A stretch of 64,000 bases of DNA from Kordia antarctica (lineage in GTDB: Bacteria; Bacteroidota; Bacteroidia; Flavobacteriales; Flavobacteriaceae): the NCBI RefSeq assembly GCF_009901525.1, contig NZ_CP019288.1, forward strand, positions 186,001 to 250,000, in the 5' to 3' direction. The notes under the pieces are model-generated. The model made no database searches, had not been told where the DNA came from, and worked only from the letters and a program-made list of their open reading frames with translations. The position numbers were made by a program, and so were the translations under genes. Within the stretch, counting starts at the first letter, position 1; each line of letters begins with the position of its first letter. Shown here piece after piece: positions 16,405 through 48,009 of this stretch.

Positions 16405-16557
16405 TTAAGGAAGTCTACAAATTCCATTATAACATGCATATGGAAAATCGCACGGTCTTCTGTGATTACAATAGCGCAATTTACCACCAATGATGTTTCG
16501 TTGCCCTTTTTTATTTATAAAAGAAAATCCGTCAAGATTTGAAATTTTATCTAACAT
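16405..16557 (-). CDS. GG-leader cysteine-rich peptide 1 (bacteriocin-like)
   Basis: This 50-residue ORF starts at the ATG at 16557. The leader MLDKISNLDGFSFINKKGQ continues to a double-glycine site (NIIGG, residues 21-25), the cut site used by peptidase-containing ABC exporters. The mature part of 25 residues has four Cys spaced C-x5-C-x5-C-x4-C (YCNHRRPCDFPYACYNGIC). It is a close paralogue of the peptide at 16972-17127, in which the leader differs more than the core. A palindromic operator and a TAnnTTTA box lie upstream, shared with three other peptide genes. Function is unknown: bacteriocin, signal peptide or disulfide-bonded effector are all possible. Confidence 0.8.
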   Translation of the reverse strand: MLDKISNLDGFSFINKKGQRNIIGGKLRYCNHRRPCDFPYACYNGICRLP

Positions 16558-16581
16558 ACTTTATAATTTTAATCGAAAGAC

Positions 16582-16628
16582 TAAATATACGAAAAAATAT
16601 ATTAAGATGAATTACGGTTTTACCGTAT
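16582..16628 (-). promoter_or_regulatory. operator and -7 box of GG peptide 1
   Basis: Read on the minus strand, the 17-mer ATACGGTAAAACCGTAA (16628-16612) contains the perfect palindrome TACGGT-AAA-ACCGTA. Twenty-two nt downstream is TATATTTA (16589-16582), then 24 nt to the ATG. The same layout is found before three other peptide genes. Confidence 0.7.
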
Positions 16629-16629
16629 A

Positions 16630-16970
16630 GTTTTTAGACTCGCTTCGCTCTTGGATTTTTAGACTCGCTTTCGCTTTTGGAAACGGCTTTGCCTTTAGTA
16701 TCGCTTCACTTCGGATTCGCTCAGTTCAGGTGCTTTTGGTATTTTAGTATGTGAATTACTTGCACATTTGATAAACTTATAAACCTTTCAACTTTTAAAC
16801 TAAAATTTTGTTGTTGGATTGTTGGGCTCGCTTCGCTTTTGGATTGTTAGACTTTCTTAGATCGTTGAGTTTTTAGATATATCAGACTTCCGTCAAGCAA
16901 AATTTGATTCAGTTTCGCATAATCAAGATTAATAGGCGAGATACTGACTAAATTTTACAATAGTTTTGCA
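16630..16970. repeat. degenerate TAGACTCGCTTCGC-type repeat block
   Basis: Between the two peptide genes, phrases such as TTTTAGACTCGCTTCGCTCT, TTTAGACTCGCTTTCGC and GGGCTCGCTTCGCTTTTGG recur with drift. They are the complement of the AGCGAAGCG phrases at 7030, 20030, 33432 and 43914. No gene is visible here. Confidence 0.65.
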
Positions 16971-16971
16971 A

Positions 16972-17127
16972 TTATGGAATTCTTTTACAAATACCACCAT
17001 AACACGCATATGGAAGATCACACGGTCTGCGATGACTACAATAGCGTTGCGAACCACCTAAAATTGTTTGTTGTTGTTTCTTTTCAAGAGCAATAAACCC
17101 TTCTAAATTTAAAATTTTGTGTAACAT
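16972..17127 (-). CDS. GG-leader cysteine-rich peptide 2 (bacteriocin-like)
   Basis: This 51-residue ORF starts at the ATG at 17127. The leader (MLHKILNLEGFIALEKKQQ) ends in a double-glycine site (TILGG). The mature part of 26 residues carries the same four-Cys pattern as peptide 1 (YCSHRRPCDLPYACYGGIC) and a basic tail (KRIP). The core HRRPCD-PYACY is conserved between the two. The operator upstream is the most degenerate of the four known here (TATGGC instead of TACGGT in one arm), but its position relative to the -7 box is unchanged. No transporter or modification gene adjoins it. Confidence 0.8.
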   Translation of the reverse strand: MLHKILNLEGFIALEKKQQQTILGGSQRYCSHRRPCDLPYACYGGICKRIP

Positions 17128-17151
17128 GATAAAAGTTTTTTTGGTTATACC

Positions 17152-17197
17152 TAAACTTAAAAAAACTAATTGTCAGTTAATTACGGTTTTGCCATAT
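17152..17197 (-). promoter_or_regulatory. operator and -7 box of GG peptide 2
   Basis: On the minus strand ATATGGCAAAACCGTAA (17197-17181) is followed after 21 nt by TAAGTTTA (17159-17152) and then 24 nt to the ATG. One arm of the inverted repeat differs at two positions from the version of peptide 1. Confidence 0.65.
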
Positions 17198-17255
17198 TTT
17201 TTTTTAGGCTTACTAATATTTTTTAGCTTAGTACATTATTAAAGCAAAAAAATCC

Positions 17256-17299
17256 CCGCTAGCGCAAGTTTCACAACTTGTGCCGACAAACAAGCTAAA
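17256..17299. repeat. dispersed hairpin repeat, family B
   Basis: On the minus strand it reads GGCACAAGTTGTGAAACTTG then CGCTAGCGG. Copies at 36662-36702 and 38086-38128 have CGAGTT/AACTCG stems instead of CAAGTT/AACTTG, a compensated base-pair change. The remainder of 17128-17371 is AT-rich and featureless. Confidence 0.75.
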
Positions 17300-17371
17300 A
17301 TGTCTAAGAAAGTCTGAAAATCCAAGCAAGTCTAAGTTGGTCTAAAAAGGTTACTGAGCGAAGTCAAAGTA

Positions 17372-46953: not shown

Positions 46954-47056
46954 TACTGCTAAGATAGAAAAAGTTCAGAGTTTGTTTTGAATGAAAAAAT
47001 ATTCATTTTGTAATATGCTTTATTCGTGAATAATAATTATTTATATTTGATTCCTT

Positions 47057-47317
47057 ATGAAGAAAATTTTTGGATATATATTTTTAGTATTAGGCGTTTT
47101 TTTTGGTTTATCATTGGTAGTACAATTACCAAAAATGATTATAAACATCATGAATGTGTTTAGATCTGGAACAAGCAACGATTTCGCTTATATTATGGGG
47201 CAACTATCTTTTTTCCTTGTATTTTCAGCCGTAATTTTCTTATTAATTAGAGTTGGATTGAAATGGATTTCTAAAAAAGATACGACAAAAGAAATCCATG
47301 ATATTGGGCGTAAGTAA
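47057..47317 (+). CDS. small two-helix membrane protein
   Basis: The 86 residues contain two hydrophobic helices (about 4-25 and 48-70) and a basic C-terminus (KWISKKDTTKEIHDIGRK). No family is recognised. A box TATATTTG ends 7 nt before the ATG; if used as promoter the transcript would be almost leaderless, so it may be coincidence. It precedes the peptide locus but lacks the shared operator. Confidence 0.6.
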   Translation: MKKIFGYIFLVLGVFFGLSLVVQLPKMIINIMNVFRSGTSNDFAYIMGQLSFFLVFSAVIFLLIRVGLKWISKKDTTKEIHDIGRK

Positions 47318-47445
47318 TGTTTGTTTTTCATACACAATATTGCTTTAAATTTATTTCTTGGTATCTATAATTGTTTGAATTTCAGTAGCTTATTAAATTT
47401 CTTGATTAAAAGTTTGAATAAAAATATCTCCTGTTCAAATGTTAA

Positions 47446-47491
47446 TTACGGTATTCCCGTAAGTGGTTATTATTTTAGTTTTATAACTTTA
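47446..47491 (+). promoter_or_regulatory. operator and -7 box of GG peptide 3
   Basis: TTACGGTATTCCCGTAA (47446-47462) has six-base inverted arms TTACGG/CCGTAA. After 21 nt comes TAACTTTA (47484-47491), then 27 nt to the ATG. Spacing and form equal those at 47765 and at the 16-17 kb locus. Confidence 0.75.
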
Positions 47492-47518
47492 TTCTAAATT
47501 AACTTTAAATTCTATATC

Positions 47519-47701
47519 ATGTTAAAAAACATTTCAAATTTGGGTTCTGTTTTGAATAAATCTGAACAAAAATCTATTAATGGAGGAAAAGCTAAATGTA
47601 CTCTAAATTATTTATGGTGTCCACCAGGATGTGTATGTTACGTGGATCAAGTAAATTGTGTACTTGTACAAAAATGCGACACAAACTCTTCTTCTTCTTA
47701 A
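47519..47701 (+). CDS. GG-leader cysteine-rich peptide 3 (bacteriocin-like)
   Basis: This 60-residue peptide has a leader (MLKNISNLGSVLNKSEQKS) ending in a double-glycine site (INGG). The leader LNKSEQKSINGG is the typical Bacteroidetes form. The mature part of about 37 residues has five Cys (KCTLNYLWCPPGCVCYV, NCVLVQKC brings the total to six) and a Ser-rich tail. The leader resembles those of the 16-17 kb peptides (ISNL motif at the start), but the core is unrelated. It ends in the shared UUCG hairpin. Export and cleavage would need a peptidase-containing ABC transporter elsewhere. Confidence 0.82.
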   Translation: MLKNISNLGSVLNKSEQKSINGGKAKCTLNYLWCPPGCVCYVDQVNCVLVQKCDTNSSSS

Positions 47702-47709
47702 AATTTCGT

Positions 47710-47739
47710 AAAGCGATCTTCGGATCGCTTTCTTGTTTT
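47710..47739 (+). terminator. UUCG hairpin terminator, copy 1
   Basis: AAAGCGATC-TTCG-GATCGCTTT followed by CTTGTTTT. The stem-loop is the same as in copies 2 and 3. Confidence 0.85.
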
Positions 47740-47764
47740 ATTATTCTACTGATTAAGTGTTAAT

Positions 47765-47810
47765 TACGGTGTTCCCGTAAGTGGTTAATGTTTTGTTTTT
47801 GTACTTTTAT
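47765..47810 (+). promoter_or_regulatory. operator and -7 box of peptide 4
   Basis: TTACGGTGTTCCCGTAA (47765-47781) is followed after 21 nt by TACTTTTA (47803-47810) and then 22 nt to the ATG. The flanks on the downstream side (GTGGTTA) are also shared with the copy at 47446. Confidence 0.75.
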
Positions 47811-47832
47811 TATCAAACCAAAACTATCTATC

Positions 47833-48009
47833 ATGAAAAAAAGAAATTTAAAAACATTAAAGCTTAACAAAGATTCTGTTTCTTCATTAGCGAATGAAGT
47901 AGTAAAAGGCGGAGCTTTTTCTGACGGTCCAATGTGTCAGACTCAAGAACCCGAATTTTGTAATTGGACATACAATAATTGGTGTTGCGGTGATACTGTT
48001 CCAAGATAA
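47833..48009 (+). CDS. GG-leader peptide 4, class I lanthipeptide-precursor-like
   Basis: I choose the ATG at 47833, 22 nt behind the -7 box; an earlier frame start lies upstream of the promoter. The 58-residue peptide has a leader MKKRNLKTLKLNKDSVSSL with the LKLNKDSVSSL motif known from Bacteroidetes natural-product precursors, and a VVKGG cut site (residues 23-27). The core has four Cys (PMCQTQ, EFCNW, WCCGD) but few Ser/Thr upstream of them, so lanthionine formation is uncertain. No LanB/LanC-like or radical SAM gene is present. The shared hairpin follows. Confidence 0.82.
   Translation: MKKRNLKTLKLNKDSVSSLANEVVKGGAFSDGPMCQTQEPEFCNWTYNNWCCGDTVPR

What the first reader, a model, noticed from the sequence alone, without database searches (positions are those of the whole stretch)
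16405..48009. Four GG-leader peptide genes at two loci share one palindromic operator at a fixed distance from the -7 box
The sequence TTACGG-N5-CCGTAA (17 bp) stands upstream of peptides at 16405 (minus), 16972 (minus), 47519 and 47833. Forms read in the gene direction are ATACGGTAAAACCGTAA, ATATGGCAAAACCGTAA, TTACGGTATTCCCGTAA and TTACGGTGTTCCCGTAA. In all four a TAnnTTTA box follows after 21 or 22 nt, and the start codon another 22-27 nt later. The operator thus covers the -33 region, where the usual TTTG is missing. This suggests an activator or alternative promoter that turns on a scattered peptide regulon. The regulator is unknown; a LuxR-type regulator (one is encoded at 6177) would suit an inverted repeat, but that is only a guess.
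Basis: partly seen in the sequence, partly recalled or inferred. Interest (0 to 1): 0.85.

Follow-up and report, generated by a model that had tools for sequence, protein, structure and literature searches.

The report
Shared switch for bacterial secreted peptides
A 17-letter palindromic DNA switch sits at a fixed place before several dozen small peptide genes scattered through a marine bacterium's genome, and in related bacteria the same switch lies beside the gene of one particular regulator and in front of a small RNA, which points to what throws the switch.

Summary
In detail: all four operators, -7 boxes and starts are where stated. The motif marks a Kordia regulon. The genome has 11 perfect copies (reversed pattern 0). 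Of 37 promoter-model sites, 34 precede GG-leader-type peptide genes at 48-90 nt (26 trained the model; 8 of 11 new sites do). In other Kordia genomes 28 of 28 examined sites do. An operator copy also precedes an M57 metalloprotease gene in 7 of 7 Kordia genomes that have it.

The LuxR protein at 6177 is probably not the regulator. In other Flavobacteriaceae the operator lies beside a different, NarL-fold response regulator (27 of 120 loci found by operator plus -7 box alone). There, often doubled 22 bp apart, it precedes a structured ~95-nt RNA gene with no Rfam match in the loci scanned; 55 of 55 copies in 199 genomes lie just downstream of that regulator. Kordia has its ortholog in 11 of 11 genomes, after a TPR histidine kinase, but not the RNA. 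I infer class II activation from about -41.5.

Binding, transcription starts, direction of control and signal are untested; no strong operator lies at the Kordia regulator itself; 78 of 97 genes of one leader class lack the operator.

The parts
16612..16628 (-). operator ATACGGTAAAACCGTAA (gene direction)
16582..16589 (-). -7 box TATATTTA, 22 nt after the operator
16405..16557 (-). GG-leader peptide, 50 aa, ATG 54 nt after the operator
17181..17197 (-). operator ATATGGCAAAACCGTAA (gene direction)
17152..17159 (-). -7 box, 21 nt after the operator
16972..17127 (-). GG-leader peptide, 51 aa, ATG 53 nt after the operator
47446..47462 (+). operator TTACGGTATTCCCGTAA, with TGTTAA directly upstream
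47484..47491 (+). -7 box, 21 nt after the operator
47519..47701 (+). GG-leader peptide, 60 aa, ATG 56 nt after the operator
47764..47780 (+). operator TTACGGTGTTCCCGTAA, with TGTTAA directly upstream
47802..47809 (+). -7 box, 21 nt after the operator
47833..48009 (+). GG-leader peptide, 58 aa, ATG 52 nt after the operator (the longer frame from 47788 would start inside the promoter)

Best explanation
TTACGG-N5-CCGTAA is the binding site of a dimeric NarL/LuxR-fold response regulator. In this Kordia genome that is the protein at C1:610389-611061, encoded directly after a TPR-containing sensor histidine kinase. The regulator binds centred about 41-42 bp upstream of the transcription start, takes the place of the missing -33 contact and activates the -7 box (a class II activator). 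In Kordia this controls a dispersed set of at least 34, with weaker sites about 40, GG-leader peptide genes, a grasp-with-spasm peptide locus and an M57 metalloprotease gene. In other Flavobacteriaceae the same operator, often doubled 22 bp apart, lies in front of a conserved structured RNA just downstream of the regulator gene. Shown: operator, spacing and gene set, conservation in the genus, genomic linkage and co-occurrence of operator and regulator, the RNA element. Inferred: binding, activation, phosphorylation, and that the Kordia ortholog does what the linkage in other genera suggests.
For: Regulon: 11 perfect sites against 0 control; 8 of 11 held-out model sites precede GG peptides at 54-70 nt; 28 of 28 sites in other Kordia genomes. 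Regulator: 27 of 120 loci found by operator plus -7 box alone carry it next to a perfect operator; operator present in 59 of 125 genomes with the regulator and 7 of 74 without, p 1e-8, reversed pattern 36 of 125 and 13 of 74, p 0.05; at least 3 operators in 15 of 125 and 0 of 74. RNA: 55 of 55 copies 91-714 nt downstream of the regulator. In 20 RNA copies held in loci that were fetched by the regulator, not by the operator, 15 have an operator within 2 mismatches in the 130 nt upstream, reversed control 0 of 20 (recounted). Fold: full-length matches to RcsB, LiaR, VraR, EvgA. Kordia: ortholog in 11 of 11 genomes; EKRK of the HTH invariant in 15 relatives and present in Kordia.
Against: No binding or expression data. 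In Kordia the regulator gene has no strong operator next to it, only two sites with 2 mismatches upstream of the kinase, and no RNA. 7 of 66 operator genomes have no regulator hit. Linkage could reflect autoregulation by, or neighbourhood with, another factor. The RNA alignment was fitted to its model.
Confidence: 0.72

Rival explanations
1. The LuxR-type response regulator in the window (6177-6830), with the kinase at 5330-6199, is the regulator.
For: It lies within 42 kb of the four sites and has a clear GerE domain (60.6 bits), the kind that reads inverted repeats.
Against: It is one of 18 GerE proteins over the cut-off in the genome and has no operator next to it. Another regulator family is tied to the operator across genera; the 6177 protein scores only E 7e-11 in the search with that family.
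Confidence: 0.05
2. A different, unseen activator binds the operator; the response regulator is only one of its conserved targets or neighbours, and in Kordia that other factor does the work.
For: In 3 of 27 loci the operator is at the start of the regulator gene, as for a target. 7 of 66 operator genomes lack the regulator. In Kordia the regulator is not next to a strong site.
Against: In 24 of 27 loci the operator is behind the regulator gene, not in front of it. The 7 genomes without the regulator are no more than the reversed-pattern rate there (13 of 74).
Confidence: 0.2
3. The palindrome is not an operator but a hairpin in the transcript, or a repeat copied along with duplicated peptide genes.
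For: It is a perfect inverted repeat, and peptide genes are duplicated in places (16405 and 16972; L023).
Against: It lies upstream of the -7 box, so it is probably not transcribed. Flanks and spacer vary while GG, CC and spacing hold. It precedes unrelated genes: M57, the graspetide precursor, the RNA. Genes with the same leader can lack it: 36 examined have nothing within 3 mismatches (they were chosen for lacking a model hit).
Confidence: 0.03

Closest known systems
ComP-ComA of Bacillus subtilis
   Same: NarL/LuxR-fold response regulator next to a histidine kinase; 6-base inverted repeat upstream of the RNA polymerase site. ComA reads TTGCGG-N4-CCGCAA (PMC4797271, passages read); here TTACGG-N5-CCGTAA.
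   Different: One base per half-site and the spacer differ; divergent HTH without GerE match; TPR sensor kinase; GG-leader peptides and an RNA as targets; no known signal.
Response regulators with a dedicated small RNA (GacA-RsmY/Z, LuxO-Qrr, RcsB-RprA; recalled, except that RcsB-rprA structures appear)
   Same: A response regulator with an inverted-repeat site in front of a small RNA gene.
   Different: Here the RNA gene lies directly behind the regulator gene, in Flavobacteriaceae; its sequence matches no Rfam family in the loci scanned and its targets are unknown.
Rfp18 of Flavobacterium psychrophilum (PMC9723704, abstract, outline and passages read)
   Same: A small RNA of Flavobacteriaceae linked to metalloprotease expression.
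   Different: Its sequence was not in the text I could read, so identity or difference is untested; the text mentions a third stem-loop, while the RNA here has two modelled helices.
GG-leader peptides of Bacteroidota (NCBIfam class I lanthipeptide leader NF038153, leader_Chryseo NF047798)
   Same: Short lysine-containing leader ending in GG, often with a cysteine-bearing core.
   Different: None of the six GG peptides and one graspetide precursor scanned reaches a model cut-off (best 17.6 of 22 bits); here they form a dispersed regulon.

Membership tests
NarL/LuxR-family response regulator | receiver domain | tested here: met
   PF00072 44.3 bits for the Kordia protein, cut-off 30.2
NarL/LuxR-family response regulator | GerE HTH by sequence profile | tested here: not met
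   no GerE match for the Kordia or the L116 protein up to E 1; not among the 20 GerE rows of the genome
NarL/LuxR-family response regulator | NarL-type fold of the whole protein | tested here: met
   predicted model of the L224 relative, mean pLDDT 91.0; best matches RcsB, spr1814, LiaR. A prediction, not a structure, and not of the Kordia protein itself (55% identical)
NarL/LuxR-family response regulator | binds an inverted repeat as a dimer | not testable with these tools
   needs binding assay
ComP-ComA | TTGCGG-N4-CCGCAA box | tested here: not met
   consensus TTACGG-N5-CCGTAA; some weak N4 sites exist
NCBIfam class I lanthipeptide leader NF038153 | score over cut-off 22 | tested here: not met
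   best 17.6 bits among the peptides scanned; only a few of the peptides were scanned
grasp-with-spasm system | ATP-grasp and SPASM maturases | tested here: met
   TIGR04192 281.9 over 230 and TIGR04193 186.3 over 175; the small peptide itself matches no model
Peptidase M57 | PF12388 over cut-off | tested here: met
   52.6 over 21
known Rfam family for the RNA | score at gathering threshold | tested here: not met
   five RNA-bearing loci (L045, L212, L153, L116, L044): no match except a tRNA; L224: sub-threshold only
Rfp18 | sequence identity with the published RNA | not tested
   sequence not in the passages read
alternative (ECF) sigma promoter | own -10 element instead of the housekeeping -7 box | tested here: not met
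   TA of TAnnTTT at operator positions 38 and 39 in 26 and 25 of 27 promoters

The most novel reading that the evidence does not exclude
A peptide-signalling system in a Gram-negative phylum: one or more of the exported GG-leader peptides is sensed by the TPR histidine kinase, whose response regulator turns on the peptide genes and a secreted protease through this operator. This would be the unidentified density signal of Kordia algicida. In sister genera the output beside the regulator is a small RNA, so one operator would have been rewired from an RNA gene to a dispersed peptide regulon.
Probability: 0.2. Interest if true: 0.95.

Novelty: new variant of a known kind. Interest (0 to 1): 0.82.

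Why it matters
It gives an exact operator, a gene set and a named regulator candidate for GG-leader peptides of Kordia, for which my literature searches listed no regulator. It ties them to an M57 protease gene of the class that rises most in algicidal K. algicida cells (PMC10565126); protease release there is density-dependent and the authors detected no acyl-homoserine lactone (PMC3117869). It also brings out a regulator-RNA module in 53 of 199 sampled Flavobacteriaceae genomes. One deletion and one binding assay would test the core.

Tried and rejected
Dropped: the 6177 LuxR protein (see rivals). LytTR-type sites: the TGTTAA and GGTTAA flanks are 25 bp apart, not the 21-22 bp that I recall for LytTR. 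XRE proteins near L006, L008 and L014: three different ones beside the same operator. A LytTR response regulator next to a weak 18.6-bit site in L066: a single case. An ECF sigma factor. Finding the regulator by proximity inside Kordia: no strong site seen next to a regulator gene.

The 2-mismatch genome scan is at background. MAFFT alone misplaced the 5' stem of the RNA; I used a 7-sequence subset with both helices set by eye and searched the rest with that model.

Literature (library of open PMC papers only): searches; I noticed no listed title on this operator, regulator or RNA. One search returned nothing and the listings of 58 and 92 were mostly unrelated.

Left out of counts: one-mismatch sites 3024158 and 3089076 were not fetched (27 of 29 examined); 18 of 58 first-in-row leader genes without a model hit were not fetched, and 4 of 40 fetched had no clear start; opposite-strand hits of the same palindrome and hits under 22.5 bits were left out of the 37 sites. 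Rows beyond the listing limits were not seen. The RNA search of 199 genomes ran with stricter filters that lose weak matches.
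Full report
WHAT IS THERE. The four operators, boxes and peptides are as described. The window is C1:186001-250000 of a 5,500,985-base genome. Its genus is Kordia: G200, of the same genus, has a contig of the same length (5,033,129) as K. algicida OT-1 record NZ_DS544873.1; the match is by length, so it is strong but indirect.

IS IT MORE THAN CHANCE. 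The perfect 17-mer occurs 11 times in the genome, its reversed control 0 times; WTAYGG-N5-CCGTAA gives 34 strand matches at 23 places against 3 control matches. At up to 2 mismatches there is no excess (180 against 208). Taking sites by DNA alone, 7 of 11 perfect sites and 14 of 27 examined one-mismatch sites (29 exist) have a GG-leader-type peptide gene starting 50-90 nt downstream; one of the 14, L021, has KGRG in place of GG.

REGULON IN KORDIA. From 27 promoters I built a 59-position sequence model, R1. In the 46 own-genome loci searched, 37 non-redundant sites score at least 22.5 bits. 34 have a GG-type peptide gene at 48-90 nt and one, L022, a graspetide-type precursor at 204 nt; the other two are L005 (M57 protease) and L006 (see noticed). 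26 of the 37 were in the training set, which was chosen for having peptides. Of the 11 others, 8 precede GG peptides at 54-70 nt; the remaining three are L022, L005 and L006. Lower-scoring sites are mixed: L061, L068, L069 and L073 precede peptides, many others nothing recognisable. In the genus 11 of 11 genomes have 15-55 hits at E<=0.001. In the 27 loci returned for the other ten genomes (their best hits), 28 of 28 sites of at least 24 bits precede GG-type peptides at 51-61 nt (L104 has GKG).

A SUBSET. The leader class MKKKNLKSLKLNKKSIS..GG has 97 matches at E<=0.003 in this genome (116 at E<=1). 19 have an R1 hit within 80 nt upstream, the same number when all 120 R1 rows are used. Of the 78 without, 20 follow another leader gene within 500 nt and may share its promoter. 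I fetched 40 of the other 58; in the 36 with a clear start the closest operator-like site has 4-6 mismatches, the reversed control 3-7. These genes were picked for lacking an R1 hit, so this shows only that no degenerate copy remains. 13 of the 36 carry TTTATAAA (1.9 expected in shuffles, maximum 6), 8 sites of this type lying 82-87 nt before ATG.

PROMOTER GEOMETRY. Across the 27 promoters GG and CC are invariant; in the gene-proximal half CCGTA is kept in 26 or 27 of 27 at each position; in the distal half positions 1 and 4 vary (17 and 18 of 27). T and A of the -7 box stand at operator positions 38 and 39 in 26 and 25 of 27. The operator thus occupies the place of the -33 TTTG.

WHICH REGULATOR. 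A scan of genome contigs for operator plus -7 box gave 120 stretches and stopped at its limit. Without any other criterion 27 of 120 carry a gene of one response-regulator family next to a perfect operator: 24 with the operator 7-314 nt after the gene's end, 3 near its start. They include Gelidibacter, Psychroserpens, Lacinutrix, Mariniflexile, Lutibacter, Flavobacterium and, with weaker relatives (E about 1e-11), Epilithonimonas and Chryseobacterium. In 199 sampled genomes of the family the regulator is in 125 and the operator in 66: 59 of 125 with the regulator against 7 of 74 without, p 1e-8; reversed pattern 36 of 125 against 13 of 74, p 0.05. Kordia has one ortholog in 11 of 11 genomes, 96-98% identical to the own copy in the other ten. 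It follows a 681-residue open frame with TPR repeats, HisKA_3 and HATPase. It is not among the 20 GerE rows of the genome, and Pfam finds only its receiver domain over cut-off. The predicted structure of a relative (L224, mean pLDDT 91.0) matches full-length RcsB, LiaR, VraR and EvgA. EKRK in the HTH is invariant in 15 relatives and present in Kordia. The 6177 protein is 26% identical.

THE SMALL RNA. Behind the regulator in other genera the operator, often twice 22 bp apart, is followed by a TAnnTTTG-type box and a stretch that typically begins UCAACA and holds UUAAUCCCUC, UGUUGA, UAAUAGCA and an intrinsic terminator. Model R2 found 55 copies in 53 of 199 genomes; 55 of 55 lie 91-714 nt after the regulator gene on its strand. 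Among 41 copies in held loci the best operator in the 130 nt upstream has 0 mismatches in 23, 1 in 9, 2 in 4, 3 in 3, 4 in 2; reversed control 2 in one, 4-6 in the rest. Half of those loci were fetched by the operator, so the fair set is the 20 copies in loci fetched by the regulator (L260-L287): 0 in 4, 1 in 7, 2 in 4, 3 in 3, 4 in 2; control 4-6. In the 48-row alignment (43 distinct) 96.0% of cells pair, 13 of 16 pairs show changes on both sides, no shuffle of 500 reaches the covariation score, and slid structures pair at 24-54%; that alignment was fitted to the model. Rfam: no match at gathering score in five RNA-bearing loci but a tRNA; sub-threshold matches only for L224. Kordia: 0 in the two genomes searched whole; in the regulator neighbourhoods of all 11 none up to E 1, and one chance-level match in the window (61245-61352, E 0.73).

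OTHER TARGETS. An M57 metalloprotease gene is in 7 of 11 Kordia genomes, each time with an operator copy of 1-3 mismatches 66-76 nt upstream; reversed control 3-5. In K. algicida the top rising secreted-protease gene in algicidal cells is an M57 gene, KAOT1_RS10890, 43 kDa, 13.4-fold (PMC10565126, section 3.2 and passages read). That genome has one match of 378 residues at E<=1e-20, so it is probably the same gene; I could not match accessions. The paper also shows that EDTA does not stop killing, so M57 is not the algicide, and it stresses nutrient control besides density. PMC3117869 (passages read) reports density-dependent protease release, sped up by conditioned filtrate, with no AHL detected. 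In other genera some operators precede large secreted proteins (L048, L055), but many sites there have no clear target.

HOW IT PROBABLY WORKS. A signal reaches the TPR kinase; the phosphorylated regulator binds the palindrome as a dimer and activates from about -41.5, so that peptides and protease rise together. ComA of B. subtilis reads TTGCGG-N4-CCGCAA (PMC4797271, passages read), one base per half-site and one spacer base away, which makes a NarL-family reader plausible but is only a resemblance. The signal, and whether the peptides feed back, are open.

Noticed in passing
L305-L307, L317, L323, L326, L328, L331 (own genome), 82-87 nt before the peptide ATG: A second class of GG-peptide promoters carries TTTATAAA or TTATAAAT at a fixed distance from ATG (TTTATAAA in 13 of 36 upstream regions, 1.9 expected), which suggests another regulator for another set of peptides.
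   Followed up: partly
L304, L310, L324, L332, L337: GGGTAA in 5 of 36 of the same upstream regions (0.46 expected, shuffle maximum 5), three of them TTTGGGTAA: perhaps a third class.
   Followed up: no
L006:2920-3040, L008:2900-3020, L014:2950-3080: Three related modules have two operators about 75 bp apart, the upstream one with a 4-base spacer, then a -7 box, membrane and small proteins and an XRE-type gene on the other strand.
   Followed up: partly
L022:795-2237 and L061:4812-5816: An operator (30.7 bits) lies 204 nt before a small peptide followed on the same strand by grasp-with-spasm ATP-grasp and SPASM maturase genes over cut-off.
   Followed up: partly
L077:3054-3904: An operator-like site with a 4-base spacer lies behind a second, more distant response regulator gene (E 6e-11) in this genome.
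   Followed up: no
L048:3001, L055:5008 and 9529: In two other genera operators lie 120-185 nt before genes for very large secreted proteins of 1413-1583 aa; I did not identify them.
   Followed up: no
L029, downstream of 3027 on the + strand: A tandem repeat that reads as HFDFAQCR copies lies directly beside an operator.
   Followed up: no
window 6850-7150: Low-complexity repeat behind the LuxR gene, reading as SLFTFHF copies in one frame.
   Followed up: no
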